Origin: an uncultured Kiloniellaceae bacterium | GTDB taxonomy: Bacteria > Pseudomonadota > Alphaproteobacteria > Kiloniellales > Kiloniellaceae | Length of the DNA: 64,000 bases | Direction: 5' to 3' | Assembly (NCBI GenBank): GCA_947493695.1 | Contig: CANLSF010000002.1 | Location: forward strand, 558,001-622,000 | Part shown: positions 7,524 through 48,679 of the stretch, piece after piece | Position numbering within the stretch: position 1 is the stretch's first letter | How the letters are laid out: each line of letters opens with the position of its first letter | Notes under the pieces: model-generated | What the model saw: only the letters and a program-made list of their open reading frames with translations | What the model was told of the DNA's origin: nothing | The model's database searches: none | Position numbers and translations under genes: made by a program

Positions 7524-7550
7524 AGAACTCAAGGTTGGAGACCGGATCTC

Positions 7551-9783: not shown

Positions 9784-9959
9784 GCCTAACGCTCCCTTGG
9801 TGAGAGCTCCTCCTTAGAAAGGTAACGGGTTAAAATCCTGCTACCCGCACTCACCCCCTCGCACCCGCGAGGAAAAGGCCGTTCGGCAGCAGTGGAATCC
9901 AAACACTGACGCCACCGGGAAAGAGGCGCTTAGCGCGAGGATTGGCCGGGTGGCGGCTC

Positions 9960-10400: not shown

Positions 10401-10596
10401 TTTTAGTCTCCGTACGGCAGATATCTGCCTTATGTGTGGAAGCGCCTTTACCAAGCGAGGCGGTTAAATGTGAAGAACAACGGGAGTTGTAACGCTCGAT
10501 TTACAGCCCGGAGTTCTGGAATCTGCAGTGGAGAATGGTTGTTGACACGGTCCTTCAAGCCTCTAGCATTCTGAGATATCGGCGGAGGTTTTGGAC

Positions 10597-27427: not shown

Positions 27428-27444
27428 CGTGAGTCCAATCATAA

Positions 27445-29793
<2,349 letters not shown>

Positions 29794-30832: not shown

Positions 30833-31999
30833 CTAAAATCCCGGCTTTCTGGCAAGCACCACGAGCGAGTGGGAGGCCGCATCGTTCAAAAACCTGCCCT
30901 TGCTCTTGTTCATGTAGACACCAAACACGCCGAGACCGACTGCCACGATTGAAAAACCGAACGGCACCAGATTATCGATATAGACGACGCCTCCTACCAT
31001 TGCGCCGAGCACGATAGCGCGGAAATAGCTATGGGCCAGAGAGAGGCGTTCCCGCTCTTTACTCAAGGCCAAGAGGCCAAGCAGGCGCTTCCCGGGTGTC
31101 GCACTCCAGCTTGAAAATTCGAACAAAGGCGCGAGAAGCAAATAGAGGCCGAAGATCACAAAGGCCCAATCGTACTGCGCCGAGAACTTGAAGAAATAAT
31201 CCAGCGGATAAAGGACCAGCGCGAGGAGGACGACATCGGCCAGAAATGCGAGCCCACGAAGAAAAGGCAAGGACTCTTCCTCGCCGTCGAAAAGCTCGGC
31301 CGCCGACTTCTTTTTTTCCTCAATGTGCAGCGCCGCACCGCCTTTGAGTCCAAACCTGTTCGACGCGCGCTGCGGCACGTAGTCCTTTAAGTCATTCAGG
31401 AACTCCAGGTCCTCGGCTCTGTAGTCGTAGCCATAGAGCAGATCGTAGTAGCGGTTGCTCCAGCCAAAAATACTGTCCAGGTAATGCAGGACTGCGGGAC
31501 GCAGCATCCCAGGTTCGTTGCGCTGTTGCTCGCAGGCCTTCCAGTGAGCAATCACCCGGGCGAAGACCGCGTCGCCGAGCGAGATGCGGAAAGCGTCGGT
31601 CATCAGATGTTCATCGCGCTCAAAGATCTTCCAGTTCTCGACAAAATAGTGTTCCTGCCCGGCGCCGAGGAGCGCGTCCATATGGTCCAGGAGGTACTGG
31701 AAATTCGGGGGCGGCACGTCGGCTTCGGGGGCTTCGTGCGGCTGATCGTCAGAACTCTCCTCCTGGAAAGTGACAGCATCAGAGCTCTGAAGGCTTTCCT
31801 CCTCTTCCTCGTCATCATTTTGAATCGCCAGCCCGTTTTCGGCGAGATAGCAGGCAAACTTGTAGGCCTCATGGAGTTCCTGAAAGGCAGCACTATCTTC
31901 GTCGGGCCGGGTCCGCTTCAGCTTTCGGGCATAGGCGCGCTTGACCTCGCGTTTGTCTTCCGTGGGCTCGATCTCCAGGACCGACCAGGGCGCTGTCAC
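30833..31999 (-). CDS. J-domain-like and RDD membrane protein, HscC partner
   Basis: GTG at 31999 overlaps the hscC stop by four bases (GTGA). Residues 1-65 resemble a J domain (APWSVLEIEPTEDKREVKRAYARKLK), but the HPD loop reads Arg-Pro-Asp (RTRPDEDSAAFQELHEAY), as in the DjlB/DjlC-type partners of HscC. An acidic linker (about 60-95) and a helical middle region follow. The C-terminal part (about 245-388) is an RDD-type membrane domain with three to four helices, including SATPGKRLLGLLAL. The protein would recruit HscC to the inner membrane. Translational coupling to hscC supports this pairing. Confidence 0.82.
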   Translation of the reverse strand: MTAPWSVLEIEPTEDKREVKRAYARKLKRTRPDEDSAAFQELHEAYKFACYLAENGLAIQNDDEEEEESLQSSDAVTFQEESSDDQPHEAPEADVPPPNFQYLLDHMDALLGAGQEHYFVENWKIFERDEHLMTDAFRISLGDAVFARVIAHWKACEQQRNEPGMLRPAVLHYLDSIFGWSNRYYDLLYGYDYRAEDLEFLNDLKDYVPQRASNRFGLKGGAALHIEEKKKSAAELFDGEEESLPFLRGLAFLADVVLLALVLYPLDYFFKFSAQYDWAFVIFGLYLLLAPLFEFSSWSATPGKRLLGLLALSKERERLSLAHSYFRAIVLGAMVGGVVYIDNLVPFGFSIVAVGLGVFGVYMNKSKGRFLNDAASHSLVVLARKPGF

Positions 32000-34766: not shown

Positions 34767-37025
34767 TTATGCCGAAGCGATGGCTTCCAGTCCGGCAAGG
34801 ATAGGCTTGCGGGCCAGATTCTCCGTGCCTAGAGCCGTGAAAAGAAGCTTCTTCGCTTCGGAGCTCTGCCTGCAGGCTTCGGCCAGATTACTGGAAAAGC
34901 CCTCTTCCAGGAGGATCGCGATGCTTTGTGCCAGGTTTTCCGGGGATTCACTGGCAAGCGCCCGATCCAGGACCGCTTGACGCACAAAAGAAGACTCATC
35001 GCGCAGAGCCGCAAGAATGCGTTCGGTGGGCAAGGACGTAATAGCGCGCAAAGCGGCAGCGCGCACCACGACGTCCGGGTCATCAAGAAGTGCTTCCAGT
35101 TCCTTTTCGCCGTGCGGCGCAGACTTCGCAACCGCCTGGGCTGCATAACCCCTGATCAAAGGACTTTCATCGCCCAGGCCTTTGATCAAAACCGGCAAGA
35201 GGTTCTCAGACAGTGCTAAGGCTTCGGAACGTTGCACTAGAGTCCCAAAGGCTGCGATCCGAAGTGGAAGCTCCTCCGCCTCCGCCGCCTGGCAAAGTAC
35301 CTGCTCAAGGTCTTCGCCACGGCAATCCGCCGCAACCCGCATCGCCACGAGACGCAGATCCATGGCGAAGTTATCAGGACCGTCGACCGCAACGCGGCGC
35401 TTCTGCTTACCGCCTTTCCGCGGTGAACCGTTTGGCGCATCACCTGAGCGCGGACTCACGATCCGGTCTTCAGTATCCGTCGAGATTGTCTGAATTGCCG
35501 CCAGCGTCGATTTCGGAAAGTCGACATCGATCACGTTACTTTCTTCACCCTGATCACGCTCAGGAGTTTCGTCGTCCCGAGCCCCTTCGGTCTTTTCAAC
35601 CTCTTCTCCCCGCGCCAACCGGGCCCGAACATCATCATCTGAGAGAATATCGCCGTCCTGCGAGAGCGTGATCCGTTGGGACGCGACCTCCTCGACCTTC
35701 GAGGCCTCAAGGGGCGCCTCTTCTTCAACGGCACGGACAGGTTGGCGGATTTCGTCGGCCGCGAATTCGCCTGAAATGGCGCCCACCAAAACCCGGCGCG
35801 CCGACTGCGCAATCGCATCATCCGTCCCTTTGGAGAGGGCCGCGAGCGAGGTCAGTGCCGAAGCGCGGATTTGCCTGGTATTGTCGCTGACGCAGGTTTT
35901 TAGTACGGTAACCACTGCATCCAACGGCAGACCCTTGAGGGCCCGTAGCGCGGCAATTCGGACTTCCAGCGCGCGTTCGGCGTCGCAGGCGATTTCGCAG
36001 AGCGGTGCGTGCGACGCCGCGCCACAGGCCCGCGGAACGTATTGGGCACAGCAGGCCGCCAGCACGGGGCCCGAGGATAACATCCAGGCTTGAATATTGG
36101 CCGCAAGATCTTCCGAGATTTCAAAGTCCGGTTTGGCAAGAAGCGCTTCGAGCGCAGCCGCGCGCACCTCCTCATTCCGGTCCTCAAGGGCAGCCAACGC
36201 GATGTCCTGCCGTTCTCCCGCAAAGGTCTCGACAACTCCACAGCGGACAAGGTGGCTGGGGTCTTCCCGCAGCAAGCGCTCGACCCATGGACTCTCCGCG
36301 TCAAGACAGCCAAGCGCAAGACGGCGCACCTCTGGACTGGCGTCCTGAATCAGGAACTCAACGCGTGGCAGGAGAACCTCTCGATTGGCTTTAGTCAGGG
36401 CGACCAGCGCCTGTTCGCGAACCCGCGCGCTACTGTCGTGCAGCAGACCCAGGAGTGTCGTGATACCGCTCTCGGGAATTTTCGCCAGCGCCGCAAAGAC
36501 AACGTCGTCGAGCTCCTGACCCATCTCATCTTCACGGGCGAGCAACAGCTCCTCAACAGCCTCTTGCGCGGCAATGTCACCCAGTGCGCAAATAGCGGCA
36601 AGCTGAACATCGAGCCAGTCATCCCACATACCGGCTTCGTCTTCCCAGGCAACATCGTGACTGCAGCGGTCTTTCGCCAACGCCATAAGAAGCGGCGCGC
36701 ACGCAGCATCCTGCACTTGGGCCAGGGCCTCAATCGCCAGGATCTTGACTTCCTTGACCGGATCGCCAAGCAAAGAGCGTCGAAGCGCATCCGCATCCTC
36801 AGGCCGTGCACAGCGGACCAGCGCAAACATCGCATCGGTCCGCACGTCCGGATCTTCATCGAGAAGCGCCTCGACAAGATCAGGCGCGGCGGACTTGTCA
36901 CCCAGCGCTGCGAGTGCTCTGGCGGCAGCGCATCGCACCACCTCATCCTCGGATTTCAATCGATGCAGAACGACATCGACTGGCTCGGGAGAAACCTTTG
37001 GCAGCAGATTCTCGGCGATCATCAC
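34767..37025 (-). CDS. HEAT-repeat scaffold protein
   Basis: GTG at 37025 lies 7 bases after AAGGAGGA; the next codon is ATG (37022). The 752-residue protein is built of short helical repeats: residues 10-420 and 560-750 hold at least twelve HEAT/PBS-lyase-like units (typical: DPDVRTDAMFALVRC, EVRAAALEALLAKP, LIRGYAAQAVAKSA). Between them (about 430-550) is an acidic, low-complexity linker (VEEEAPLEASKVEEV). No catalytic site or export signal is seen, so it should be a cytoplasmic binding or assembly factor. It lies just downstream of the molybdoenzyme operon, separated from it by the strong hairpin at 37219-37263. A role in maturation of that enzyme is possible but unproven. Confidence 0.85.
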   Translation of the reverse strand: MMIAENLLPKVSPEPVDVVLHRLKSEDEVVRCAAARALAALGDKSAAPDLVEALLDEDPDVRTDAMFALVRCARPEDADALRRSLLGDPVKEVKILAIEALAQVQDAACAPLLMALAKDRCSHDVAWEDEAGMWDDWLDVQLAAICALGDIAAQEAVEELLLAREDEMGQELDDVVFAALAKIPESGITTLLGLLHDSSARVREQALVALTKANREVLLPRVEFLIQDASPEVRRLALGCLDAESPWVERLLREDPSHLVRCGVVETFAGERQDIALAALEDRNEEVRAAALEALLAKPDFEISEDLAANIQAWMLSSGPVLAACCAQYVPRACGAASHAPLCEIACDAERALEVRIAALRALKGLPLDAVVTVLKTCVSDNTRQIRASALTSLAALSKGTDDAIAQSARRVLVGAISGEFAADEIRQPVRAVEEEAPLEASKVEEVASQRITLSQDGDILSDDDVRARLARGEEVEKTEGARDDETPERDQGEESNVIDVDFPKSTLAAIQTISTDTEDRIVSPRSGDAPNGSPRKGGKQKRRVAVDGPDNFAMDLRLVAMRVAADCRGEDLEQVLCQAAEAEELPLRIAAFGTLVQRSEALALSENLLPVLIKGLGDESPLIRGYAAQAVAKSAPHGEKELEALLDDPDVVVRAAALRAITSLPTERILAALRDESSFVRQAVLDRALASESPENLAQSIAILLEEGFSSNLAEACRQSSEAKKLLFTALGTENLARKPILAGLEAIASA

Positions 37026-37218
37026 GGCGGACTCCTCCTTATCGGTTCATTGGGTTAAGGCGCATAAACGACGGTGATCCCGATCGCATTATGAGATCTC
37101 AACCCTGAAGGCGGCTCGCACTCCTGATCAGCTCCGTCAAGAGTGATCGCGCACTGGAGACTGATTGTTTTCACGCTCCCGTAAAAACGTGAAACAGCCT
37201 CATTTTTGTATAAAATCA

Positions 37219-37263
37219 AAGGGCGGTCGCTCCTGACATGGCAGGCCAGGAGCGACCGCCCTT
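37219..37263 (-). terminator. Strong terminator-like hairpin after idr operon
   Basis: Perfect 17-bp arms (AAGGGCGGTCGCTCCTG at 37219-37235 and its complement at 37247-37263) enclose an 11-base loop. On the minus strand it starts 10 bp after the stop of the molybdopterin gene and is followed by TTGATTTTATAC, so it can end the operon. It separates the operon from the HEAT-repeat gene. Confidence 0.85.
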
Positions 37264-37273
37264 GCAGATAAAA

Positions 37274-39949
37274 TCAGGCAATATCCCGACGGGCAAAAGA
37301 CATGGAACGGAACTGCTTTTTGTAGGGGCTCTCACCCAAACGCCGCACCTGTCCAATACCCATCTTGTAATTGTAATTGCCGCTGATCCAGTCGACGACC
37401 CGCCCGGCCAGCGCGTTTGCCGGCTGGCTGGTGTGCAGGAAGTCCATGTAGCCGACACCCTTCTTCACGGCAGGCGTCACCATGGCAACCGCGGTAATCG
37501 CCGCTTTGGTCAATTCGATATGACCGTTCTCCAGCAAGGAGGCAAAATCGAAGTCATCGCCCTCGATACCGATGATGGTGTCTTTCTGAACCGGGATCCG
37601 GTCGGAATAGAGCATGACGTAGTCGCCTGATTCGACACCATACTTCTCGGCATCTTCAGGATGCAGCTCGATCCAGTTTTCCGGCCAACGCTGGACGATG
37701 TACGGGCGGCGGCGGTCATCGTAACCGGACTGCCAGCGCTCGTTGATCCGGCCAGACGTCATCCAGATTTCGCCCTCGCGGGGCTTCAGCCACTCCCAGT
37801 AACTGGAGAAGAGACTCCAGGGTGCTTTTTGCAGGTTGCACTTACCGGTCTGGGTGTTGAAATGGGTCAGCTTCTTATTGAAGACGGTGCCACCGGCCGG
37901 GCCATTTTCAGGCAGAACACGATTGATGTCGTGAAGACGTTTGGTTTCCTCCAAGGTTCCGTCCGCCCGCATCAGGACAGGTCCCTGAATGCCGTTGGTG
38001 CCGAACTCACCGAGCTTCTCGTGAAGGGTCTTGCCTTCGCGGTGCGCGGCAACCTTGACCATATGGAAGTCCTTGCGCGATCCACGTGACCGGCGCGAGC
38101 CTTCCTCCAGAACCTCGTTGGAGTTTTTCCAGTCGAAGCCTTCGAAGCCCATTTTCTTCGAGAGCTGCGCGATGATCCACCAATCCGGCTTCGCCTCACC
38201 CGGCGCATCGTAGAATTTCGGGTAAAGCCGGATACGCCGTTCACCGTTGGCACGGGTGAAGGTTTCTTCGCCCCAGCCCGACGCCGGGAAGACGATGTCC
38301 GCATAGCGTGCGCCAATAGGATCAACCAGATAGATATCCTGATCCCACACGACCATACCGCCGGAGTCAGCACGTCTCTTCAAGGTCTCGATAATCTCGG
38401 CCTTGTCAAAAGACTGTACCTGGTGCGGATTGCGGGTGGTCAGTTCATCGAACTTGGACTGCAGTGACTGCGAACCAAGCATGGCCTGCACCCAGGTGGT
38501 GCCGATGACGTGTGCCAGACGCGTGTGACCCGATATGAGGTAGCGGTCGGTGTCCATGGCGCGCCGGCGGCGTCCCGGCAGTTTTTCCGGGCTTTTGTTG
38601 CGCGGATAGGAACCGCCGCGCAGACCGCCGCGTTGATGTCCGCCCGCACGGCCGATGACCTGGCCAGGACGGCCACCACAGCCGCAGATGATACCAAGCG
38701 AGGAAATCGCGTTGGTGTTGCCGGTGTTGTTGGACCAGTAGAAGCCCTTTTCGATCATGATCGAGGTCTTGGGCCGGGTTCCGTCCGCTTTCGGCTTCGC
38801 CATCCACTCGGCGGCTTTATAGATCTTCTCAACGTCGATCTGGGCAATCTCGGCGGCTTTTTCAGGCTCGGCATAGTCCTGTTCGAGCAACCACTTCTTC
38901 CAGTCCTCGAAACCGTCGGTCTGGAACTTGCCCCAGGTCGTGCGCCACTGCCAGGGCGTGTTACGGGTGCCCTGTCCGAACCCGGAAGAGCTTTCCCACT
39001 TGGAGTTGACCCAGTTCTGGATCCATTCCGCGTCTTCCCAGCCCTTCTCGACAATCACACGGGCAATCGCCAGAACCACAGGCAGATCGGTGCCCGGCTG
39101 GATGTCGATCAACATGCCGCCGTTCTTCTCGGCATAGGCAACACCGGCAGTCCGGCGCGGCAGAAGGAAGATGGTCTTCTGGCCGTTCTGAATGCCCGGC
39201 ATGATCCAGTCCGTGAAGAGAATCGTCTTGGACTCATAGGGATCCGTGCCGCACATCAGCAGGGTGTCGGCGTCGCGCCAGTCCTCGTAGCTGGGTCCGA
39301 AATTGTCAAAACCGGCATCCCGAAAACCGGGCGTCGAGGTGACATCGGACGGCGTATCGTGGAAGGTGAAGTTGGCCGTTGAGATATTGCGCAGCGCGTA
39401 CTTGGTAATGGCGTAGGTGTTCTCCATGTAACCGTAGGAGAAGGTCTTCACGCCGTAGGCATTGGTGCCGTGCTTCTCGAGCACATGCTTGCCGACTTCG
39501 GCGGCGATATCCAGCGCGAAGTCCCAGGTCACCGGCATCAGAACGCCGAACATCCGCACCATGGGGGACTTCAGACGATCACGTGTCGGGGTCTGTGGAT
39601 TGTAGACCTTCTGCGCGATCGCGCCGCCACGGATCGAAGAGTTACCCCTTGGATTGACGTGCTCGGTGTCCTTGTCGGGAATGATCACGACATGATGCGG
39701 TTCGCCGTTGTGCAGCACAATGTTGTGCTGAGTGGGTGCAACCCAGGCACCGAGAGGTGCGACCGGGAAATCTTCACCAAAAGCGTTCTGATCGGCAGCG
39801 GGACCGCCGACCTTGCCGCCGCGGACCGGCCAGCGGTAAACCTTGTAACCGCAGGCGACGATGCAGTAGTCGCACGCCGTGGTGATGACGTCCGCATCAG
39901 GCGGCGGCAGGGGAATCGATTCCTCGGGGACATAATATGGGGTGGACAT
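37274..39949 (-). CDS. idrA: Molybdopterin oxidoreductase, iodate reductase IdrA-like
   Basis: The ATG at 39949 follows GGAG. The 891-residue protein belongs to the AioA/IdrA branch of the DMSO reductase family. Cys26, Cys29 and Cys33 (ACDYCIVACGYKVYRW) give the C-x2-C-x3-C site of a 3Fe-4S-type cluster, and the fourth position near RGNSSIRGG offers Ser, not Cys. GRAGGHQRGGLRGG (about residues 430-445) corresponds to the active-site segment that reads GGHQ in arsenite oxidase. The protein has no signal peptide and would be exported folded with the TAT-tagged Rieske subunit. Co-encoded dihaem peroxidases and the absence of arsenic genes favour iodate reductase (IO3- as electron acceptor) over arsenite oxidase. 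Confidence 0.82.
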   Translation of the reverse strand: MSTPYYVPEESIPLPPPDADVITTACDYCIVACGYKVYRWPVRGGKVGGPAADQNAFGEDFPVAPLGAWVAPTQHNIVLHNGEPHHVVIIPDKDTEHVNPRGNSSIRGGAIAQKVYNPQTPTRDRLKSPMVRMFGVLMPVTWDFALDIAAEVGKHVLEKHGTNAYGVKTFSYGYMENTYAITKYALRNISTANFTFHDTPSDVTSTPGFRDAGFDNFGPSYEDWRDADTLLMCGTDPYESKTILFTDWIMPGIQNGQKTIFLLPRRTAGVAYAEKNGGMLIDIQPGTDLPVVLAIARVIVEKGWEDAEWIQNWVNSKWESSSGFGQGTRNTPWQWRTTWGKFQTDGFEDWKKWLLEQDYAEPEKAAEIAQIDVEKIYKAAEWMAKPKADGTRPKTSIMIEKGFYWSNNTGNTNAISSLGIICGCGGRPGQVIGRAGGHQRGGLRGGSYPRNKSPEKLPGRRRRAMDTDRYLISGHTRLAHVIGTTWVQAMLGSQSLQSKFDELTTRNPHQVQSFDKAEIIETLKRRADSGGMVVWDQDIYLVDPIGARYADIVFPASGWGEETFTRANGERRIRLYPKFYDAPGEAKPDWWIIAQLSKKMGFEGFDWKNSNEVLEEGSRRSRGSRKDFHMVKVAAHREGKTLHEKLGEFGTNGIQGPVLMRADGTLEETKRLHDINRVLPENGPAGGTVFNKKLTHFNTQTGKCNLQKAPWSLFSSYWEWLKPREGEIWMTSGRINERWQSGYDDRRRPYIVQRWPENWIELHPEDAEKYGVESGDYVMLYSDRIPVQKDTIIGIEGDDFDFASLLENGHIELTKAAITAVAMVTPAVKKGVGYMDFLHTSQPANALAGRVVDWISGNYNYKMGIGQVRRLGESPYKKQFRSMSFARRDIA

Positions 39950-39961
39950 GGTTGCGTCTCC

Positions 39962-40546
39962 TTAGCCCTGAAGATTATCGAAACGGCCGTAGATCAGGCC
40001 AAACATACCGACGGCATAGATGTCGTCGCCCTCAAGCTCCAACAGCACCTGCGGCAGAGACTGATAAGCCTGGCCGGAAATAAAGATGCCGTGGCGGGTG
40101 AGGTCGAAGGTGGTCAAATGCAGAGGACAGGGACCCAGCGCCTTATCGGCCGCCTGGTAAGTGCCCTGCAAAGCGCCGCCCTGGTGGGTGCAGGTGTAGT
40201 TGAAGGCAACCACGTCCTTGTCGGGCCCAAGCCCGCCACCGGCCTCGTTACCGAGCTTGACCAGGATCGATTCCGCGTACTGCCCCTCATCGGGGTATTC
40301 GAAATCGAAAGGCTCGTCGACCTTCAGGGACGAAAGCTTGGTAATGAACTTCTTGGGGTAGGTCGCCACCACTGCCGGAGTCTGTGACTCCGCCAGCCCT
40401 GGAATACCAACCATCACGATAGTGGTCGCAATACCGCCGGAAAGCAGAAAGCTGCGCCGGTTCATCAGACAAGACCGGGTGCCGGCCTTCTTCGCCTCGC
40501 CGTTTTCACCATTGATGGCAGCGGCTATACGGGGATCGATCGTCAT
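39962..40546 (-). CDS. idrB: Rieske 2Fe-2S subunit, IdrB-like, TAT exported
   Basis: This 194-residue small subunit would pass electrons to the molybdenum subunit. After a 28-residue N-terminal extension comes a twin-arginine signal, NRRSFLLSGGIATTIVMV. The Rieske motifs are Cys-Thr-His-Gln-Gly near residue 119 and Cys-Pro-Leu-His near 140 (CPLHLTTFD). The second motif lacks the extra cysteines that form a disulphide in bc1-type Rieske proteins, as in AioB. The stop lies 12 bp before the idrA ATG and the gene is on the same strand. The TAT signal can carry IdrA as a hitchhiker to the periplasm. Confidence 0.85.
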   Translation of the reverse strand: MTIDPRIAAAINGENGEAKKAGTRSCLMNRRSFLLSGGIATTIVMVGIPGLAESQTPAVVATYPKKFITKLSSLKVDEPFDFEYPDEGQYAESILVKLGNEAGGGLGPDKDVVAFNYTCTHQGGALQGTYQAADKALGPCPLHLTTFDLTRHGIFISGQAYQSLPQVLLELEGDDIYAVGMFGLIYGRFDNLQG

Positions 40547-40561
40547 CTCGTCCCACTCCTC

Positions 40562-41692
40562 TTAATTTTGAAGCGCTGCAGGCAGCGGTTCCATTACCGG
40601 AAGCTCCGGCTCTTCAATCAGAATTTCATCGCCCGAGAGTGACTCGAGGAAGGCAACCAGATCGTCGATTTCGACATCGCTGAGACCAAGCGGTTTGATC
40701 AGCGGGCTTTTGGTCTTGGCGAATTCGTTGGTACCGCCACCCTCGTTGTAGAACACCACCACATCGCGCAGAGTCTCGATCATGCCGTTGTGCATGTAGG
40801 GAAAGGTGTACTTGGTATAACGCAGACTGGGCGTCCGGAACTTGCCCTTGTGCTGTGCATCCTTGCTGCGGAAGTACAGACCGGGGTCGTCCTTGGTATT
40901 GCGGTAGAGTTCCTCATTCGAGCCCTTGGCGTAGAGTTCGAAGCGGAAGGTGATCTGTGCAAGCTCGTCTTCTTCCCAACCGGAATAAGGCGGCACACCG
41001 AGATTGTAATACTGCTGATCGGACAGCAGCGGCCCGTTGTGGCAAGCCACGCAGTTGCCCTTGCCGGTAAAGACTTCGAGACCGCGTTTCTGCTGGTCGG
41101 TCAGCGCCGCATCGTCACCGTTCATGTAATTATCGAATGGCGTATCCATCTGCACAAGCGTGCGTTCGAATGCGGCGATCGCCATATAAGCGTGACGGAC
41201 GTTGGGCCAGTCATCCCCAAAAACATCTGCAAAGCGTTCCCGATACTCGGGCACAAACGCCAGGCGCGCTTCCATCATATCGTCTTCGCCGTTGCCTGCG
41301 ACACCGCCGCGGGCTGCCGAACGCGCCTGCCCCTCGAGGGACTTGGATGCCCCCGCCAGGAAGAGGTTCGTGTAGTAAGCCGAGTTAATAATGGTCTGGC
41401 TGTTACGCCAATGGGTCGTGCCGGGATAACCGAAGCTGATCGGTGCCTGAATAGCCCAGCCTGCCTCGGGCAGGTGACAGGCCGAACACGGCATCGCGTA
41501 GTTGCCCGAAAGGATCGGATCGAAAAACAGCATCTTGCCGAGCTCGATCTTTGCATCCGTCATGGGATTATCGGCCGGGATCGGAGGTGGCCCGAGAGCC
41601 GCCAGGCCTTCCGGTCGATGGCCATCCGCCAGTGCAGGCACCGTCAAAAACGAAGCAAGCATGGCGGCAGTAAGTGTCCTGGATAAGGTCAT
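40562..41692 (-). CDS. Dihaem cytochrome c peroxidase, IdrP-like
   Basis: The ATG at 41692 (MTLSRTLTAAML) has GGAGG five to seven bases upstream; the in-frame ATG at 41704 overlaps the previous stop and is less likely. A Sec signal peptide ends near LTVPALADG. The 376-residue mature protein holds two c-type haem sites, CSACH (Cys69-His73) and CVACH (Cys214-His218), in the MauG/bacterial cytochrome c peroxidase family. Conserved SGNYAMPCSACHLPEAG and YMHNGMIETLRDVV are present. It should reduce hydrogen peroxide in the periplasm. Such peroxidases accompany IdrAB, where they are thought to remove H2O2 made during iodate reduction. Confidence 0.88.
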   Translation of the reverse strand: MTLSRTLTAAMLASFLTVPALADGHRPEGLAALGPPPIPADNPMTDAKIELGKMLFFDPILSGNYAMPCSACHLPEAGWAIQAPISFGYPGTTHWRNSQTIINSAYYTNLFLAGASKSLEGQARSAARGGVAGNGEDDMMEARLAFVPEYRERFADVFGDDWPNVRHAYMAIAAFERTLVQMDTPFDNYMNGDDAALTDQQKRGLEVFTGKGNCVACHNGPLLSDQQYYNLGVPPYSGWEEDELAQITFRFELYAKGSNEELYRNTKDDPGLYFRSKDAQHKGKFRTPSLRYTKYTFPYMHNGMIETLRDVVVFYNEGGGTNEFAKTKSPLIKPLGLSDVEIDDLVAFLESLSGDEILIEEPELPVMEPLPAALQN

Positions 41693-41703
41693 TGTCGCCT
41701 CCA

Positions 41704-42777
41704 TTAATTCTTCGTATCGCGCCAGTTTTCGATCAGCTCATAACCATAGTCATCAGCCCGCCAGACGTATTCGTCCGTATCGAAAGTCTCACCACTGAGC
41801 GATTGCAGAAAGGCGACCAGATCGGCTTTCTCGTTCGACGCCAGATCAAGCGGTTTCAGGCGCGCGTCCTTGAGCGGATCATCACCGCCGCCGGCATTGT
41901 AGAAATCAACAACATCCTCAAGCGTGGCCATGACACCATTGTGCATGTACGGCGCCGTCCAGGTCAGTTCGCGCAGGGTCGGCGTCAGGAAGCTGCGCTC
42001 CGTCCCCTCCCTGCGGGTGCGGACCCAGGCACCAACGTCCTCTCGCAAATTCATGTAGTTCTCAACACCCATGAACTTGGCATAAGTGACAAACGCGGAA
42101 TGCCGCTCCGGATCGCTCCAGATGTCCGGGTTGTTCGGAACACCGGTATTGTAAGTCGCGTCATCCGTGTAGCGCGTGCCGGAATGGCAGGCAGCGCAGC
42201 CGCCCTTGCCATTAAAGACTTCCTGCCCTCGCCTGGCCGACTCCGAAAGCGTACCTTCGTCAATGGGCGCATTACGCGAAACAATGGTCTTCATGAAGGC
42301 CTGAAGCGCATTCCGAGCGCCGCCGTTCGAAGGCTCCTTCATACCGGCCGTATTGAACATCTCCACATAAACAGGGTCCTGCTTCATGCGTTCCTGCATG
42401 ATCCGCATGTCCATGTTCATCATGTAGGTTTCCGTGATCATCTCACGGCTGACATCGTTCAGGTTCGTACCTAAACGGCCATCATGAAACCAGGCAGCGC
42501 GATAGCCGACATTGGCCAGGGTCGGCGAATTGCGGAAGTGTGCGGCGCCCGTATAGGCAGCCGACAGCGCCTCGCCATCTGTGAAGGCCTTGTCCGGCTG
42601 ATGACAGCTCGAACAGGCCAGAGTGGTATCGCCCGACAGTCTCGTATCATAGAACATCCGCTTACCGAGCTCGGCCAATTCGGGCTTGACCTCCATCGGC
42701 TTGAGCTGGCCCGTATCCTGGGCAAGCGCGGAACATCCGGCCAGCGCAGTACAGGCAAGGGTTAGCATCAGTCTCAT
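41704..42777 (-). CDS. Dihaem cytochrome c peroxidase, IdrP-like, possible lipoprotein
   Basis: The first gene of the operon. The ATG at 42777 follows GGGGAGA; an upstream TTG at 42783 is less good. The 357-residue protein has two haem c motifs, CSSCH (Cys55-His59) and CAACH (Cys194-His198), with the family segments LACSSCHQPDKAFTDG and PYMHNGVMATLEDVVDFYN. Its N terminus (MRLMLTLACTALAGCSAL) contains the lipobox LAGC at residues 12-15. It may thus be membrane-anchored, unlike its soluble-looking partner encoded next. Order in the operon is peroxidase, peroxidase, Rieske, molybdenum subunit. Promoter elements lie at 42833-42872. Confidence 0.88.
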   Translation of the reverse strand: MRLMLTLACTALAGCSALAQDTGQLKPMEVKPELAELGKRMFYDTRLSGDTTLACSSCHQPDKAFTDGEALSAAYTGAAHFRNSPTLANVGYRAAWFHDGRLGTNLNDVSREMITETYMMNMDMRIMQERMKQDPVYVEMFNTAGMKEPSNGGARNALQAFMKTIVSRNAPIDEGTLSESARRGQEVFNGKGGCAACHSGTRYTDDATYNTGVPNNPDIWSDPERHSAFVTYAKFMGVENYMNLREDVGAWVRTRREGTERSFLTPTLRELTWTAPYMHNGVMATLEDVVDFYNAGGGDDPLKDARLKPLDLASNEKADLVAFLQSLSGETFDTDEYVWRADDYGYELIENWRDTKN

Positions 42778-42858
42778 CGACAATCTCCCCGAAGCACAGC
42801 CGCGCAGAATGATGGCGGCTCGAAGCGGGAACTAGATAGAAAGGCTCCGAAACTGTAA

Positions 42859-42872
42859 TTGATTGAAATCAA
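42859..42872 (-). promoter_or_regulatory. FNR/DNR box and -10 element of idr operon
   Basis: TTGATTGAAATCAA is a perfect TTGAT-N4-ATCAA site. On the minus strand a TATCTA hexamer lies at 42838-42833. This places a start near 42826, about 40 bp from the box centre, the geometry of a class II FNR-activated promoter. The idr operon ATG is at 42777, leaving a leader of about 50 bases. Confidence 0.85.
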
Positions 42873-43044
42873 TCGGGGTCGCGAAATTGATCAAATATTA
42901 AAGTGCTCGTTATAGTTGATGCGCTAAAGCACCGGTATCTCTAAGAAATCGATTTTAAATTCAACGAAAAATCCTGAACGAATTTCTATAGGTTGCAATA
43001 ACACCAGTAAAGTTGCCCGTTTTTTTGAGCATTCGCTCCGCGAG

Positions 43045-43058
43045 TTGATGCAGATCAA
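43045..43058 (+). promoter_or_regulatory. FNR/DNR box and -10 element of crp-family gene
   Basis: TTGATGCAGATCAA is a second perfect TTGAT-N4-ATCAA site. A TATCTA hexamer follows at 43081-43086. A start seven bases later (43093) is 41.5 bp from the box centre, exactly the class II FNR spacing. The regulator gene begins at 43368, so the leader would be about 275 bases. It contains a perfect 15-base palindrome at 43220-43234 (CGATGCG-T-CGCATCG). Confidence 0.82.
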
Positions 43059-43367
43059 CGTGATTATTCTCAGGATTCGTTATCTAGGTCCTATTCCGAT
43101 CTTACGGGTTCATTTGATGGGTCAGAGGTAATTATCGGGCGCGTTACTTATCCGATTATTGCCTGTGACCCACCGTGAACCGGGGTCTTCTGTCTCCTGG
43201 ATGTGTTGTGTTTATCGACCGATGCGTCGCATCGAATGCCCCGCGCCGGACGGTACCGCATCGGCCTTCAAAACGCGCTGTGCCAGGAAAGAAAGTCATC
43301 CCCGGGCAAATGAACCCCGCAAGATCGAATGATGCTCCAACAGCACAACAAACTTTGGGGATGCGCA

Positions 43368-44111
43368 ATGGACAAGGTTCCGAGCGTTCTAACTATCGAG
43401 GCACCTGATCATTCATTAGAAACCACAGGTCTTCCCGACCGCCTACCCTGGAACCGGCTGTCAGCCGAAAGCCTCTGCGACCTGCTGGGCCCGGCGACTC
43501 TTGTCAGTCTTTCACGGGATGAGGAAGTCGGCTCCGATATCGGCATTGTAGTCTCCGGCGCATTCGCCGTGCAGCGGGAACTGTCTGACGGGCGCAGAGT
43601 ACTCTGCAGTCTGTTCCATGAAGGCGATCTGGTCGACGTGCGGCGGAGCGAACGGATTCGACAGGGCAGACTGATTGCCTTGAAGGACTCGGAGTTTCTG
43701 ATGCTCGATGAAGATCAGATCGAGACCTGTATTAAAAGGCACAGCGATATCGCAGGGGCCTTCATTACACAGCAGGGCACACACTTTGCGCGGATGCGCG
43801 ACCATGTAACTGATCTCGCCTGCAAGACTCCCTTTGAACGCCTCGCGTCCGTATTGTTCGAATTCAAGCGCTGGCCCCGGCGGCAAAGCAAAATACGAGA
43901 CGCAGATACGGTGCACATCCCAATCATGCGGATTGATATCGCCGACTATATCGGGGTCAAGCCTGAGACCGTGAGCCGCGCGATCCGCAAGCTCGAGCAG
44001 GAAAAACGCATCGCCATCCCGCGGTCTGATCAGGTTTTTATGATCGACGTTCCCGCCATGCGCCAGATTGCAAACGGCGGCCGCCCGCGGCAATCCACCC
44101 GCAGGGCCTAG
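43368..44111 (+). CDS. Crp/Fnr-family regulator (FNR/DNR-type DNA recognition)
   Basis: The ATG at 43368 lies after TTTGGGGATGCGCA. The 247-residue protein has a cyclic-nucleotide-binding-like fold (about 40-150, with VVSGAFAVQRELSDGRR and FHEGDLVDV) and a C-terminal HTH. The recognition helix reads KPETVSRAIRKL, the E-x-x-S-R pattern of FNR, FixK and DNR proteins that bind TTGAT-N4-ATCAA. The N terminus lacks the cysteine cluster that binds 4Fe-4S in FNR, so it is closer to DNR/FixK or to an unsensed type. Two perfect boxes in the divergent region suggest that it controls both itself and the idr operon. Confidence 0.85.
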   Translation: MDKVPSVLTIEAPDHSLETTGLPDRLPWNRLSAESLCDLLGPATLVSLSRDEEVGSDIGIVVSGAFAVQRELSDGRRVLCSLFHEGDLVDVRRSERIRQGRLIALKDSEFLMLDEDQIETCIKRHSDIAGAFITQQGTHFARMRDHVTDLACKTPFERLASVLFEFKRWPRRQSKIRDADTVHIPIMRIDIADYIGVKPETVSRAIRKLEQEKRIAIPRSDQVFMIDVPAMRQIANGGRPRQSTRRA

Positions 44112-44128: not shown

Positions 44129-45673
44129 TTACTGCGGTGTAGACCGCGCCTCGCCGACGACACGCACGCGCGCACGGATGGCACGGCCCGGCAGATAACT
44201 GAGCGGCAGGTCTTCGACCTCGATAACCTGGATTGTTTCGCTATCTGCGCCGGCTTTGACCGCATTGTCGATGGCATTTTCGCGGGCGGACTCAATCGCG
44301 TCCTCACGGTCCATATCCCGGTAGATCCGGTCGGTCTCTCCGGAAATCTGCGCGATGGCCGCCCCAACCGCGTTAGCCACGGATTCATGCTCGACATGCA
44401 CCACTTCGCTTATACCCGCCATGCTCTCGGGTATAAGCATTGCCCCGCCGCCCACGGCCAACAAAGGAACCGGTGTCGCATCGGTTTTCATCCGATCGAC
44501 AGCTTCGGCGAGGCGCAGGTGAACCGTCTCAAGCGCCGCGTCGATGACGGCCTTATCAAGATTCTGAACCAGCGCTTTGTCGCCGACATCCGCGAGCCCG
44601 GCCGCAACTGCAATATCCGTGCAGGTCAGAGTCTTGCCGCCAAACACCAAGGCTTCATGTCCCAGGCGATATCCCACGGATTGCGGACCAATTTTACTGG
44701 CATCCTCGGACACAATCGTTCCGCCGCCGATGGCGATGGACAGCAGATCGGGCATGCGGAAAAGCGTGCGCACGCCGCCGACTTCGACGACGTTGTTGGC
44801 CTCCCGCGGGAAGCCGTTTATCAGGCAGCCAACGTCGGCGGTGGTGCCGCCAACGTCGCAGACCATCGCGTGCTTAATTCCGGTCAAGAGTGCGGCGCCG
44901 CGCATTGAATTGGTCGGACCGGACGCAAATGAGAAGACGGGGTAATCCCGTGCCAGCTCGGCGCGGGCGACAGTTCCATCATTCTGAGTGATGAACAGGC
45001 TGGCATTCAAACCGCTTTCCGATACGGCTGAGCTGAAGGCCCGCGTGATCTCATCGGCCAGGCCGATCAGCGACGCATTCATCAGCGCTACATTCTCACG
45101 TTCCAACAAGCCAATGCGGCCCAAGGCGGAGGACAAGGTCACATGCGCATCGGGATGTTCGTTTTTCACGATCTCCGCTGCGCGGATCTCGCACTCGGCC
45201 GTCAAGGGCGAGAAGGTCGCGCTGATCGCCACCGCATTCACGCCATCACGGCGAATTGCGCGCGCGGCCTCGACAATCTCCATCTCATTCATGGGCACGA
45301 CCGGACGTCCGTCATATTCGTGTCCGCCATGCACGAGGTAGGTACCGCCATTCACTTTGGCCGAAAGTTCGCTCGGCCAGTCGCAAAAGGGGATCAGACT
45401 TGCGGAAGCCGGAAGGCTGATCCGGATGGCAGCCGCCCGACCTATGTTCCTGCGCTCGACAACGGCGTTGGTGTAATGGGTCGTGCCGATCATCACCGCA
45501 TCGACGCCCTCAATCGCAGATCCCGCCGAGGTAACGATTTCCGCCAGCGCCTTTTTTATGCCGCTGGTGACGTCGGGTGTGGTGAAGGTCTTTGTCGCGC
45601 AGACCACCGCTTCGCCGTCAATCAAAACCGCATCCGTATTGGTACCGCCGACATCAATGCCAATTCGCTTCAC
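44129..45673 (-). CDS. Hydantoinase/oxoprolinase family protein (HyuA-like)
   Basis: GTG at 45673 overlaps the upstream DUF917 stop by four bases. The 514-residue protein starts MKRIGIDVGGTNTDAVLID, the ATP-binding loop of the actin-like hydantoinase A family, and has DVGGTTADVGCL (near 270) and GHEALVFGGKTLTCTD, as in HyuA/oxoprolinase A. These ATP-dependent enzymes open cyclic amides such as hydantoins or 5-oxoproline. It lacks the B subunit (HyuB); this single-subunit form is commonly paired with a DUF917 gene, as here. It converges on the regulator gene with only 17 bp between stops. The neighbouring divergent ABC operon may import its substrate. Confidence 0.9.
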   Translation of the reverse strand: MKRIGIDVGGTNTDAVLIDGEAVVCATKTFTTPDVTSGIKKALAEIVTSAGSAIEGVDAVMIGTTHYTNAVVERRNIGRAAAIRISLPASASLIPFCDWPSELSAKVNGGTYLVHGGHEYDGRPVVPMNEMEIVEAARAIRRDGVNAVAISATFSPLTAECEIRAAEIVKNEHPDAHVTLSSALGRIGLLERENVALMNASLIGLADEITRAFSSAVSESGLNASLFITQNDGTVARAELARDYPVFSFASGPTNSMRGAALLTGIKHAMVCDVGGTTADVGCLINGFPREANNVVEVGGVRTLFRMPDLLSIAIGGGTIVSEDASKIGPQSVGYRLGHEALVFGGKTLTCTDIAVAAGLADVGDKALVQNLDKAVIDAALETVHLRLAEAVDRMKTDATPVPLLAVGGGAMLIPESMAGISEVVHVEHESVANAVGAAIAQISGETDRIYRDMDREDAIESARENAIDNAVKAGADSETIQVIEVEDLPLSYLPGRAIRARVRVVGEARSTPQ

Positions 45674-46791
45674 GACAGTGCCTCGTCAAAAACAGAAGAA
45701 AACTCTATATCGAACCCGAAAGCTCTGGGACCGACGGCCTCCAACCCCTTGGGCGACAGGAAGACCGGGGGCGCGGGTAGCGCCAGCACCGAGACACGCT
45801 GTCCAAAGCGGATAATGTCCGTGCCGATTCCCTCACCGGAGACACTATCAAGCAGGCAGATAAGGTCGGGCGTCATCACCACCGGTTCACCGTCTTTGTA
45901 GGCAACGGCGAATTCATTCTGAAAATGGACAACAAGTTTCGATCCGCTGTCGTTGCCCAGGCCCTCAATCACGGCGTTGCCACGCAGGAAGCCTTCCGTG
46001 GCCCGGCGCTCCACATCGATAACCTTGCCGGTGAACATCAGTTTGCCATGCGCCGCCTCCAGGACCGCCTCGATCGGATCCGCATGGGCACGTCGTGCCG
46101 CAAGGACCGTCTCACCAAGGCGGATCGCTTTTGAGGTGGTATAGAGGATTCCGTGTTTTTTGACCTCGGCACCGGTGCGCGGGGCTTTGCAGGTCGCGGC
46201 GACTGAGCCGATTTCAGTACAGGCTTTCCGGCTGATCCGCTCCATCCAGGTCCAGGATTCAGCGCGTGGAATGATGACTTCGTTATCACGGATGTCGGCC
46301 ATGGCAAAGGGGAAACATCTCAAATCCCCCACCGCGACCGACGTCATCTGTGCTTCCGGATAAGCCCTTCCCATGGTGTCCGCATCAACCACAGGCAAAC
46401 CGGTCAAAGCCGCAATCAGCAGAGGTTGAAGTCCATTCCCACCGCCGATCTCGAGCGCCATCACCGCATCGAACTTGCGGCCCAGATACTGTTCCATCAT
46501 CCGGACCGGGCGTGCCGAGAATTCAGGGTCGGACAGGCGCTCCTGGCCCACGATGGGCGCCCCCATATTAGAGACGACGGCAACGCTAGCGTCACTTTCC
46601 AACGACATGGGGTCGATCAAAGTGACCGTATGCCCACGCGCGTAGAGTTGCCGCATGTTGAGCAGTTTATGGTAGGGATCACCGCCACCGCCGGTGCCCA
46701 ATATCCAAGCGCCGATCGCAAGTGCTTCGACATCATCCGCGGTCAGAACGCGATGAGTCTGATTTGGTGTGCGAAGAGCCAGACCGGCCAT
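45670..46791 (-). CDS. DUF917 family protein
   Basis: The ATG at 46791 (MAGLALRTPNQTHR) follows GGGAGGAGG. The 373-residue cytoplasmic protein has the family start ADDVEALAIGAWILGTGGGGDPY, MALEIGGGNG, VVDADTMGRAYPE and the C-terminal VMTPDLICLLDSVSGEGIGTD typical of DUF917 (PF06032). Its biochemistry is not established. It is encoded with hydantoinase/oxoprolinase-family genes in many bacteria and is taken to be a partner or second subunit in their pathway. The pair is divergent from the ABC transporter operon beginning at 47072 across about 280 bp, suggesting shared control by the LysR gene in that operon. Confidence 0.9.
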   Translation of the reverse strand: MAGLALRTPNQTHRVLTADDVEALAIGAWILGTGGGGDPYHKLLNMRQLYARGHTVTLIDPMSLESDASVAVVSNMGAPIVGQERLSDPEFSARPVRMMEQYLGRKFDAVMALEIGGGNGLQPLLIAALTGLPVVDADTMGRAYPEAQMTSVAVGDLRCFPFAMADIRDNEVIIPRAESWTWMERISRKACTEIGSVAATCKAPRTGAEVKKHGILYTTSKAIRLGETVLAARRAHADPIEAVLEAAHGKLMFTGKVIDVERRATEGFLRGNAVIEGLGNDSGSKLVVHFQNEFAVAYKDGEPVVMTPDLICLLDSVSGEGIGTDIIRFGQRVSVLALPAPPVFLSPKGLEAVGPRAFGFDIEFSSVFDEALS

Positions 46792-47071
46792 CCAAATGCC
46801 TCCTCCCAATCAGGGTTACCGTATCGTTGTTGACTAAAAAAGATGCAGAACGATCCAGTTTGCAAATAATGATACGGCATGCACCCGATAATCCGCACCT
46901 ATGAGCAATCTGCTGTTAGGCGGAGGACATAGGCTTGGTCAATGCCCGTCATTGACAATGATTAGTTTCCAAGCGCCGCTATCGCTGCTGATATGAATTG
47001 CTTCAGGCCTATGCCGGTCGCGATTTTTGGCGATGGCATCATCCTGAGGCATCTATCTGGGAGAGGCTCAA

Positions 47072-48679
47072 ATGAAAATCACAAGAAGAATCGCAACCAC
47101 GGTGATCGCAGGTGCAGCCGTGCTCGCAGGCGGCTTTATGATGCTGCCGACGCAAGACGCCACGGCCGCCGAACAGGTCGATGGCAAGCTCTATATGGTT
47201 ATCGCCGGCCGCCAGCCCGTCAGCCATCTCGACCCGGCGCTCAAGTATGATCTTGCTGTGCGCATGATGCAGCAACAGCTCTATGACGCGCTGGTAAAGT
47301 ACGAAGGAAATCCTTCGGAAATCAAACCCTGGCTCGCGGAAAGCTGGAGCACCTCGGACGATGGCCTGACCTGGACCTTTAATCTGGCCAAGAACGCAAA
47401 ATTCCACGATGGCAGTCCGGTCACTGCGGACGCGGTAGTCTATTCCTTCAAGCGGACCATGGAAATCAACGAGGGTCCGGCCTGGATGCTGGAGGGCTTT
47501 GTCGAAGCCGACGGCATTAAAGCCGTCGATGCCCACACGGTTTCCTTCACGCTCAACAAGCCCTACGCGGCCTTTTTGTCGTTTCTGCCCTGGTGGTATG
47601 TGGTGAATCCGGCTGTTGTCGAGGCGAACATCAAAGACGGCGATTTCGGCCAAGGCTTCCTGCAGGAAAATGCCGCCGGGTCCGGCCCCTACAAGCTACA
47701 GCGCTTCGAGCAGGGCACCGCCTATGTTCTGGAGCGCAACGACGACTACTGGAAGGGTTTTCCCTACGAAAATGACCGGATGGGGGGGGTGATTTACCGC
47801 CTGGTCCGCGAAAGCGCAGCGCAACGCGCGGCTCTCTTAAAGGGAGAGGCCGATCTGGTGACGGGACTTTCTCCGGAAGAACGTCAGGCAGTCAACGCCA
47901 ACAAGGATATCTCGACCACTTCGCTTCCGGCGCTGACGTCTTTCGGCCTGAAGATGAACACCACCCAGGGCGTCACGGCGGATCTCAATATCCGTAAGGC
48001 CCTGGCCTACGCCTACGATTACGAAGCCTTTATCAAGATCATGAATGGCGAAGCGAAACTGCAAACCAGCCCCTTCACCGATGCGGTCCAGGGTATGGTT
48101 CCAATCGCAGACATGCCAAGCCGGGACGTTGCCAAAGCGAAGGAATATCTGGCTAAGTCAGCCCATCCCGACGGTGGCTTTGAGGTCGAATACGTCTATG
48201 TCGAAGGCTTTGAAATCGAACGACAGATGGGCCTCGCCATGATCGACGCCTACAAGGACATCAACGTTGCCGTTAAGATGGTGCCGCTGACCTGGCCGAA
48301 TATGGTCGCCCGGGGTGCTAAGCCCGAGACGTCACCGGATCTCATGGCGATTTTCGCAACCCCCGTCTCGACGGATCCGGACGCAATCGCCATCCAGTAT
48401 CATCCTTCTTCAGCCGGGAAGTACTATGGCTCCCACTTCCTGAACGATCCGGACTTGAATGCATTGATCGAAAAGGCCCGTGCGGAAACCGTTTGGGACA
48501 AGCGGGCGCCGATCTACGCTGAAATTCAACAAAAGATCGTGGATCTTCAGCCTGAGATATTCGGTATGATGCGCAACCGTGGCGTCGCGCTGCGCGACTG
48601 GGTCAAGGGCTACCAAGACAGCCCAATCCGTATGGGCGGTGAGATCGACTTTTATTCGGTTCACCTCGATCCGCAATAA
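47072..48679 (+). CDS. Peptide-type ABC transporter substrate-binding protein (SBP family 5)
   Basis: The ATG at 47072 follows GGGAGAGG. The 535-residue protein has a signal peptide (ending near ATAAEQ, residue 34) and the family-5 extracellular binding fold of DppA/OppA. LDPALKYDLAVRMMQQQLYDALVKY and the FHDGSPVTADAVVYSFKR motif (near 130) are classic. It would bind a peptide, opine or related cyclic amide in the periplasm and deliver it to the two permeases encoded next. The hydantoinase/DUF917 pair encoded divergently hints at a hydantoin- or lactam-like ligand, which is inference. A stable hairpin separates this gene from the rest of the operon. Confidence 0.93.
   Translation: MKITRRIATTVIAGAAVLAGGFMMLPTQDATAAEQVDGKLYMVIAGRQPVSHLDPALKYDLAVRMMQQQLYDALVKYEGNPSEIKPWLAESWSTSDDGLTWTFNLAKNAKFHDGSPVTADAVVYSFKRTMEINEGPAWMLEGFVEADGIKAVDAHTVSFTLNKPYAAFLSFLPWWYVVNPAVVEANIKDGDFGQGFLQENAAGSGPYKLQRFEQGTAYVLERNDDYWKGFPYENDRMGGVIYRLVRESAAQRAALLKGEADLVTGLSPEERQAVNANKDISTTSLPALTSFGLKMNTTQGVTADLNIRKALAYAYDYEAFIKIMNGEAKLQTSPFTDAVQGMVPIADMPSRDVAKAKEYLAKSAHPDGGFEVEYVYVEGFEIERQMGLAMIDAYKDINVAVKMVPLTWPNMVARGAKPETSPDLMAIFATPVSTDPDAIAIQYHPSSAGKYYGSHFLNDPDLNALIEKARAETVWDKRAPIYAEIQQKIVDLQPEIFGMMRNRGVALRDWVKGYQDSPIRMGGEIDFYSVHLDPQ

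What the first reader, a model, noticed from the sequence alone, without database searches (positions are those of the whole stretch)
37219..44111. Putative dissimilatory iodate reductase operon with its own regulator
Four closely spaced minus-strand genes encode two dihaem c-type peroxidases, a TAT-exported Rieske protein and an AioA-branch molybdopterin subunit. This gene set is the published signature of IdrABP1P2, which reduces iodate anaerobically; arsenite oxidase clusters have no peroxidase genes. No arsenic resistance or aioXSR-type genes are present. The molybdenum subunit shows a C-x2-C-x3-C cluster site with Ser-type replacement at the fourth position and GRAGGHQRGG at the active-site segment, where arsenite oxidase has GGHQ. 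The divergent Crp/Fnr gene, two FNR boxes and a 17-bp-stem terminator make a self-contained module.
Basis: partly seen in the sequence, partly recalled or inferred. Interest (0 to 1): 0.9.

Follow-up and report, generated by a model that had tools for sequence, protein, structure and literature searches.

The report
Iodate reductase operon with HEAT partner
This stretch of a marine bacterium's chromosome carries the known gene set for turning iodate into iodide, and next to it sits a fast-evolving helper-like gene that travels with this enzyme in many marine bacteria but turned up in none of the iodate papers searched here.

Summary
The finding is real. Window 37274-42783 (minus strand) encodes idrP2-idrP1-idrB-idrA. 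IdrA falls in the iodate-reductase clade, apart from arsenite oxidase; it lacks the AioA glutamate and has GGHQR where AioA has GGHQE. The operon is a new member of a published kind, IdrABP1P2.

Corrections: the [3Fe-4S] site with Ser, and GGHQ itself, are shared with AioA. 'Dissimilatory' is unproven for this clade: its tested marine relatives reduced iodate mainly under oxygen limitation and did not grow anaerobically (PMC11445184). The host also has aioBA about 285 kb away and a third, deep-branching Idr-like cluster.

It lies beside idr in 75 of 81 loci (in 5 of the other 6 the contig ends too soon). In 385 genomes of the class it was hit in 10 of the 12 with IdrA and 0 of 373 without. My paper searches found nothing on it. 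An assembly role is inferred.

The divergent Crp/Fnr gene and FNR-type boxes are conserved together (boxes of 9/10 or better in 18 of 21 loci).

The parts
37274..39949 (-). idrA, molybdopterin subunit, 891 aa
   Evidence: Pfam Rieske_3 + Molybdopterin; Idr clade in tree; residues
39962..40546 (-). idrB, Rieske [2Fe-2S] subunit with TAT-type motif RRSFL, 194 aa
   Evidence: TIGR02694 115 bits; motifs
40562..41704 (-). idrP1, di-haem CCP/MauG-family protein, 380 aa
   Evidence: PF03150; two CxxCH
41704..42783 (-). idrP2, di-haem CCP/MauG-family protein, 359 aa (in-frame ATG at 42777)
   Evidence: PF03150; two CxxCH
34767..37025 (-). HEAT-repeat partner gene, 752 aa, two alpha solenoids; conserved neighbour of idr
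   Evidence: HEAT_2; 75 of 81 loci; phyletic match; AlphaFold2 pLDDT 84.6
43368..44111 (+). Crp/Fnr-family regulator, 247 aa from the start suggested by relatives (ORF open from 43329)
   Evidence: HTH_Crp_2; start by comparison
42859..42872 (.). FNR-type box TTGATTGAAATCAA, upstream of idrP2
   Evidence: 10/10 match, one of two in the window; kept in relatives
43045..43058 (.). FNR-type box TTGATGCAGATCAA, between idrP2 and the regulator
   Evidence: 10/10 match; kept in L008, L016, L010, L012
37219..37263 (-). terminator-like hairpin between idrA and the HEAT gene
   Evidence: 19 pairs, 13 G-C

Best explanation
An IdrABP1P2-type periplasmic iodate reductase of the marine clade, in a host of the genus Denitrobaculum. 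Electrons reach the IdrB Rieske centre, pass the IdrA [3Fe-4S] cluster and reduce iodate at molybdenum, probably to hypoiodous acid, which disproportionates to iodide; IdrP1/IdrP2 remove oxidant by-products (published Denitromonas model; inferred here). The Crp/Fnr protein acts on the TTGAT-N4-ATCAA boxes and turns the operon on, most likely at low oxygen (pairing shown by conservation; signal inferred). The HEAT-repeat protein beside idrA is a fifth component of this clade's module (association shown) and most likely a cytoplasmic assembly or proofreading scaffold for IdrAB before Tat export (inferred, about 50%). Its likeliest use is as an electron sink when oxygen runs short; growth on iodate is possible in this nap-bearing host but unproven.
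For: Tree: window IdrA among 26 Idr-side rows (100/100), 16 AioA rows apart (97/87). AioA Glu in 16 of 16 AioA rows and 0 of 26 Idr-side rows; GGHQE 16 of 16 against GGHQR 25 of 26. Gene order P2-P1-B-A as published. No chlorite dismutase in the host, which fits the Denitromonas rather than the SCT model. HEAT gene next to idr in 75 of 81 loci, in 10 of 12 IdrA genomes and 0 of 373 others. Boxes >=9/10 in 18 of 21 loci with the Crp/Fnr gene, 5 of 25 with the kinase/regulator pair, 8 of 20 others, 118 of 4000 random stretches.
Against: No biochemical test; named IdrA of proven strains could not be fetched, so the clade assignment of proven enzymes rests on papers. NCBI's arsenite-oxidase equivalog model passes IdrA (441.6 against 359.05 bits). 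The HEAT gene is missing in the branch that resembles the proven respirers (Azonexus, Thiothrix, G235, G022) and in G014, so it is not needed by every Idr; in the window a hairpin and 248 nt lie between it and idrA; its distances follow IdrA's less closely (Spearman 0.73) than those of B, P1, P2 (0.91-0.94). The window's regulator lacks the N-terminal cysteines of oxygen-sensing FNR. 8 of 20 loci with neither regulator type also have a box.
Confidence: 0.85

Rival explanations
1. A divergent arsenite oxidase that lies beside two peroxidase genes.
For: TIGR02693 is passed; the best solved-structure matches are AioA/AioB; His, Arg and His of the AioA site are shared.
Against: Tree and residues; the host has its own AioA scoring 1195 bits on that model against 433 for this gene.
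Confidence: 0.04
2. A true Idr that supports anaerobic growth by iodate respiration in this host.
For: Host has napA and a nosZ-family gene, so it can probably grow without oxygen; FNR-type control.
Against: Three marine alphaproteobacteria with idr did not grow anaerobically (PMC11445184), but those were called aerobic bacteria; all then-proven respirers are in another clade (PMC8801600).
Confidence: 0.35
3. The enzyme's main natural substrate is another oxyanion, such as bromate or chlorate.
For: Substrate range is not readable from sequence; the site change is shared by the whole clade.
Against: R. azorensis IdrA was found in the iodate-active gel band and is induced by 0.1 uM iodate (PMC11445184).
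Confidence: 0.06
4. The HEAT gene is only a passenger that is inherited with the operon.
For: Hairpin between the genes in the window; median identity only 26%; looser distance correlation.
Against: The next most frequent real neighbours are in 21-23 of 81 loci. It is kept in a second arrangement (L085, L087), overlaps idrA by 4 nt in 4 loci, is kept 13.5 kb away in G653, and has 0 hits in 373 genomes without IdrA.
Confidence: 0.15

Closest known systems
idrABP1P2 of Denitromonas IR-12, Pseudomonas SCT, Aromatoleum TC-10, Azoarcus DN11 (growth on iodate reported)
   Same: Four genes in the same order; Mo subunit and Rieske related to AioAB; two di-haem peroxidases
   Different: DN11 has a sigma-54 regulator and kinase upstream; the window has a Crp/Fnr gene and a HEAT gene. 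The nearest look-alike that I could fetch, Azonexus L099, has 50% IdrA identity, cytochrome c and moaA and no HEAT hit on its plasmid
idr of marine aerobic alphaproteobacteria (Roseovarius azorensis, Notoacmeibacter, Aliiroseovarius)
   Same: Presumably the same clade: the window IdrA is 85% identical to that of an Aliiroseovarius MAG (L032), whose locus also has the HEAT gene
   Different: The tested strains themselves were not among my loci; L032 shows a response-regulator gene and no Crp/Fnr gene on its short contig
Arsenite oxidase AioAB
   Same: Fold family, [3Fe-4S] site with Ser, Rieske partner, GGHQ
   Different: No peroxidases in the six annotated plasmid neighbourhoods seen; Glu and GGHQE against Ser and GGHQR
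HEAT/PBS-lyase repeat proteins (CpcE/F, NblB)
   Same: Weak repeat-level matches
   Different: None reaches a curated cut-off in the window protein; two solenoids with a long disordered linker; fold search gives generic scaffolds

Membership tests
IdrABP1P2 iodate reductase | IdrA groups with iodate reductases and not with AioA | tested here: met
   100/100 clade of 26 Idr-side rows; AioA apart. Rows of proven enzymes themselves were not available
IdrABP1P2 iodate reductase | Two adjacent di-haem peroxidase genes in the order P2-P1-B-A | tested here: met
   published order
IdrABP1P2 iodate reductase | IdrB with TAT signal, IdrA without export signal, P1/P2 with Sec signals | tested here: inconclusive
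   RRSFL found in IdrB; no signal predictor was run; P1/P2 and IdrA judged by eye
IdrABP1P2 iodate reductase | Score of at least 640 with the published IdrA HMM | not testable with these tools
   HMM of PMC8692401 not held (cut-off)
IdrABP1P2 iodate reductase | Reduces iodate to iodide; mutant does not | not testable with these tools
   needs the bench
AioA arsenite oxidase | Glu eight residues after the site His, and GGHQE | tested here: not met
   Ser and GGHQR (role of these residues recalled)
AioA arsenite oxidase | Passes TIGR02693 | tested here: met
   441.6 against 359.05; the four other Idr-side genes from the phylum search pass too (404-437 bits), so the model does not separate the two
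FNR oxygen sensor | N-terminal cysteines for a [4Fe-4S] cluster | tested here: not met
   Cys only at 37, 80, 121, 152 of the 247-aa form; Roseibium and Pseudovibrio counterparts have an N-terminal cysteine group
FNR oxygen sensor | FNR-type operators TTGAT-N4-ATCAA next to the gene | tested here: met
   (consensus recalled)

The most novel reading that the evidence does not exclude
The HEAT-repeat protein is an unrecognised, dedicated maturation factor of marine-clade iodate reductase: a cytoplasmic double solenoid that holds IdrA (or IdrAB) during cofactor and Fe-S insertion and releases it to Tat. It would be a new type of molybdoenzyme chaperone, unlike the TorD/NarJ kind (comparison recalled), and it would mark off the marine Idr clade from the clade of proven iodate respirers.
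Probability: 0.45. Interest if true: 0.7.

Novelty: new variant of a known kind. Interest (0 to 1): 0.52.

Why it matters
Iodide in surface seawater drives ozone loss and iodine emission (PMC11445184), and that paper calls the mechanism in marine aerobic bacteria unclear. The HEAT gene and the Crp/Fnr-box pair are two concrete, deletable candidates for what makes marine iodate reduction work and what switches it on. The case also shows that a curated arsenite-oxidase model passes idrA, and that one host can carry AioA, IdrA and a third enzyme, so names alone mislead.

Tried and rejected
Arsenite oxidase: rejected on tree and residues. Chlorite-dismutase step of the SCT model: no PF06778 match in the host. 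IdrA structure: pLDDT 48 from 13 rows, not used. HEAT fold search: generic scaffolds (CAND1, karyopherins, PP2A-A, SF3b) with TM-scores of about 0.2-0.4; profile search of solved structures gave mostly designed alphaRep proteins, adaptins and armadillo designs. Lipobox on IdrP2: in the window by eye (LAGC), but such a motif was found in only 5 of 68 P2 ORFs (ORF starts may be wrong), so dropped. Substrate of the third host cluster: not assignable.

Rows left out of counts: the box test used 66 of 81 loci, those with two peroxidase ORFs and enough upstream sequence. The distance comparison used 52 of 81. The tree used 46 hand-picked rows: 17 of the 80 Idr loci and the window, 8 further Idr-side rows, 16 AioA rows, and 4 host outgroup proteins, all four cut by their locus ends; the Thiothrix row lacks its N-terminus. 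The HEAT count over 385 genomes used E <= 1e-25; a laxer limit (1e-8) was tried on 10 chosen genomes or records only. The profile was built from idr loci, so unrelated HEAT proteins were not counted.
Full report
What is there. On the minus strand of window 34767-42783 lie idrP2, idrP1, idrB, idrA and a HEAT-repeat gene, with a divergent Crp/Fnr gene at 43329-44111. Family searches give CCP_MauG for both P genes, Rieske and TIGR02694 for idrB, Rieske_3, Molybdopterin and TIGR02693 for idrA, HTH_Crp_2 for the regulator and HEAT repeats for the last gene. The four idr genes are 12, 15 and 0 nt apart; the HEAT gene follows 248 nt later, behind a hairpin of 19 pairs.

Host. The window lies in a genome of 6.46 Mb in 20 contigs. 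A genome that the tool calls 'same genus' (G697) has its idrA at exactly the coordinates of Denitrobaculum tricleocarpae R148 contig NZ_ML660067.1, so by this reckoning the host is a Denitrobaculum. It has napA, a nosZ-family gene (458.5 bits, below the cut-off of the model used) and no chlorite-dismutase match.

Is it iodate reductase? I collected the best 80 of 163 related loci with named organisms, loci from annotated plasmid records and from 398 genomes of the phylum, 14 of which had a match. In a tree of 46 rows the window protein lies in a clade of 26 Idr-side rows (100/100); 16 AioA rows, among them the host's own AioA, form another (97/87). Eight residues after a conserved His, AioA has Glu in 16 of 16 rows; the Idr side has Ser in 20, Asp in 5 and Ala in 1, the window Ser. 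After GGHQ, AioA has Glu in 16 of 16; the Idr side has Arg in 25 of 26 (Azonexus Cys) (the roles of these residues in arsenite binding are recalled). NCBI's arsenite-oxidase equivalog model passes this protein (441.6 against 359.05 bits); two Idr-like plasmid genes are annotated by names of that kind or as a general molybdopterin oxidoreductase.

What is published. PMC8692401 (passages) speaks of 145 putative iodate-reducing genomes, conserved idrABP1P2 order, and an idrA deletion in Denitromonas that lost growth on iodate. PMC8801600 (passages) puts all then-confirmed iodate respirers in one small clade with variable two-component, cytochrome c551 and moaA genes. PMC11445184 (parts 1-3 of 5 read) shows three marine alphaproteobacteria that reduced 2 mM iodate almost fully in static culture and 0.1-0.5 mM when shaken, with no growth or reduction in N2-filled bottles; induced washed cells of R. 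azorensis reduced iodate anaerobically only, and idr transcription was highest in static culture with iodate. The window IdrA is 85% identical to that of an Aliiroseovarius MAG and 50% to the Azonexus plasmid protein whose neighbours (kinase, sigma-54 regulator, cytochrome c, moaA) look like those of the respirers. So iodate reductase is well supported, and 'dissimilatory' is not shown for this clade.

The HEAT gene. In 81 loci (80 plus the window) a homologous HEAT ORF follows idrA on the same strand in 73 and lies divergently upstream of idrP2 in 2 gammaproteobacterial loci; in 5 the contig ends within 700 nt of idrA; only L064 lacks it with room (1,933 nt). In 71 of the 73 the predicted ORF begins no later than 210 nt after idrA (some predicted starts lie inside idrA); the exceptions are L008 (300 nt) and the window (248 nt). 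In 4 loci the overlap is 4 nt. Leaving aside small ORFs that, as I read them, overlap these genes in other frames, the next most frequent neighbours are a histidine kinase, a response regulator and the Crp/Fnr gene in 23, 23 and 21 loci. In the same 385 genomes of the class a 27-row HEAT profile (E <= 1e-25) hits 10 and IdrA (E <= 1e-180) hits 12; the 10 are among the 12, and none of the 373 others is hit. Of the two left over, G506 has a more distant HEAT gene 66 nt after idrA; G449 has idrA at a contig end and no hit at 1e-8. In G653 the genes are 13.5 kb apart, and in G648 on two contigs. A weak HEAT-like ORF lies divergently upstream of idrP2 on a Vibrio plasmid (hmmsearch E 1e-5, Pfam HEAT_2 24.8 bits, below its cut-off). 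Against: no hit in G014, G235 or G022, nor on the Azonexus and Thiothrix plasmids (their chromosomes were not searched). The host has one copy; none was found around aioA in the six AioA loci examined.

Its nature. Median identity is 26% for HEAT against 80% for IdrA over 52 loci. The AlphaFold2 model (mean pLDDT 84.6) has helical solenoids at about 15-420 and 550-752 and a mostly disordered linker with a conserved P-x-STL-x-AI stretch (Ser506 invariant); W127 and W134 are invariant in 27 sequences. No curated NCBIfam family covers it and solved folds point only to generic protein-binding scaffolds. Literature: no held paper has iodate, 'HEAT repeat' and molybd, and none has 'HEAT repeat', molybdoenzyme and chaperone. 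Three have 'iodate reductase' and the word heat: in the two that I looked into, the passages shown are about heat-killed controls; the third, on Shewanella, I saw only in the listing. Two idr papers speak of poor or limited conservation around the four genes. Seven held papers name idrABP1P2; of two of them (PMC9732548, PMC11302344) I saw only the listing. Most subscription papers are not in that library.

How it might work. IdrA has no signal of its own and is thought to be carried out with IdrB through Tat (PMC8692401), so it must be loaded in the cytoplasm. A scaffold without an evident export signal (by eye), encoded next to idrA, fits an assembly or proofreading role. This is inference; a regulatory or protective role is not excluded.

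The switch. The two boxes are the only perfect ones in 64 kb and both are present in L008, L016, L010 and L012. Of 66 loci with usable upstream sequence, a box of at least 9/10 is found in 18 of 21 with the Crp/Fnr gene (the other 3 have CTGATTGCAATCAG), 5 of 25 with the kinase/regulator pair and 8 of 20 others, against 118 of 4000 random stretches. Relatedness among loci inflates these counts. The window's regulator lacks an N-terminal cysteine group that its Roseibium and Pseudovibrio counterparts have, so how this one senses oxygen or iodate is open. I found no held paper that ties a Crp/Fnr protein to idr: three papers hold 'iodate reduction', Crp and idr, and by their titles all are on Shewanella (listing only).

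Third enzyme in the host. On contig C8 an ECF sigma/anti-sigma pair, a Rieske protein, an Idr-like Mo protein, a di-haem cytochrome c, a 253-aa protein and one peroxidase form another cluster. Its Mo protein is sister to the other Idr-side rows (a long branch, so its place is less sure). Among 58 relatives only one other genome, of the same genus, has it at 97%.

Verdict. The operon is a sound new member of the Idr family. What is added is a conserved fifth gene, unreported as far as these searches go, and a conserved Crp/Fnr-box pair; together they make the marine module a variant of the published one.

Noticed in passing
L096 (G000:C8:224000-237669), 4247-12061: Third AioA/IdrA-branch cluster in the host: ECF sigma and anti-sigma, Rieske, Idr-like Mo protein (46% to the window IdrA), di-haem cytochrome c, 253-aa protein, one di-haem peroxidase. 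Found in one other genome of the genus among 58 relatives.
   Followed up: partly
L097 (G000:C2:874000-892000), 2187-11007: aioBA of the host lies beside an ArsR-type gene, an EPSP-synthase-like gene, an iPGM-like metalloenzyme gene, a methyltransferase and a LuxR-type regulator. EPSP-synthase and phosphoglycerate-mutase homologues make arsonopyruvate in bisenarsan biosynthesis (PMC12159101, passages), so a carbon-arsenic pathway is possible here.
   Followed up: partly
window 26528-29793: Peroxidase-family gene (PF00141, 765 aa, two stretches; looks like katG) next to a divergent LysR-type gene (by eye), about 7 kb past the HEAT gene; possibly peroxide defence.
   Followed up: no
window 30833-33687: HSP70-family gene and a DnaJ/RDD gene in tandem, same strand as idr, past the HEAT gene and a convergent beta-lactamase-fold gene. 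ORFs of like size lie there in L016.
   Followed up: no
window 44129-48679: Hydantoinase-A-like and S-Me-THD-like genes back to back with what looks by eye like a peptide-type ABC transporter; of the two related loci with the same genus-level context, L008 has the pair and L016 does not.
   Followed up: no
L065, L070, L077, L080, L082, L128, L129: Deep-branching idr loci carry a roughly 720-aa protein with a cytochrome bd subunit I match and, in several, a cytochrome c and a 260-aa protein related to one in the host's third cluster: perhaps a membrane route for electrons to Idr.
   Followed up: partly
L017-L038 and other marine idr loci: A PAS-histidine kinase with receiver domain and an OmpR-type response regulator take the place of the Crp/Fnr gene in many loci: the switch has been exchanged within the clade.
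   Followed up: partly
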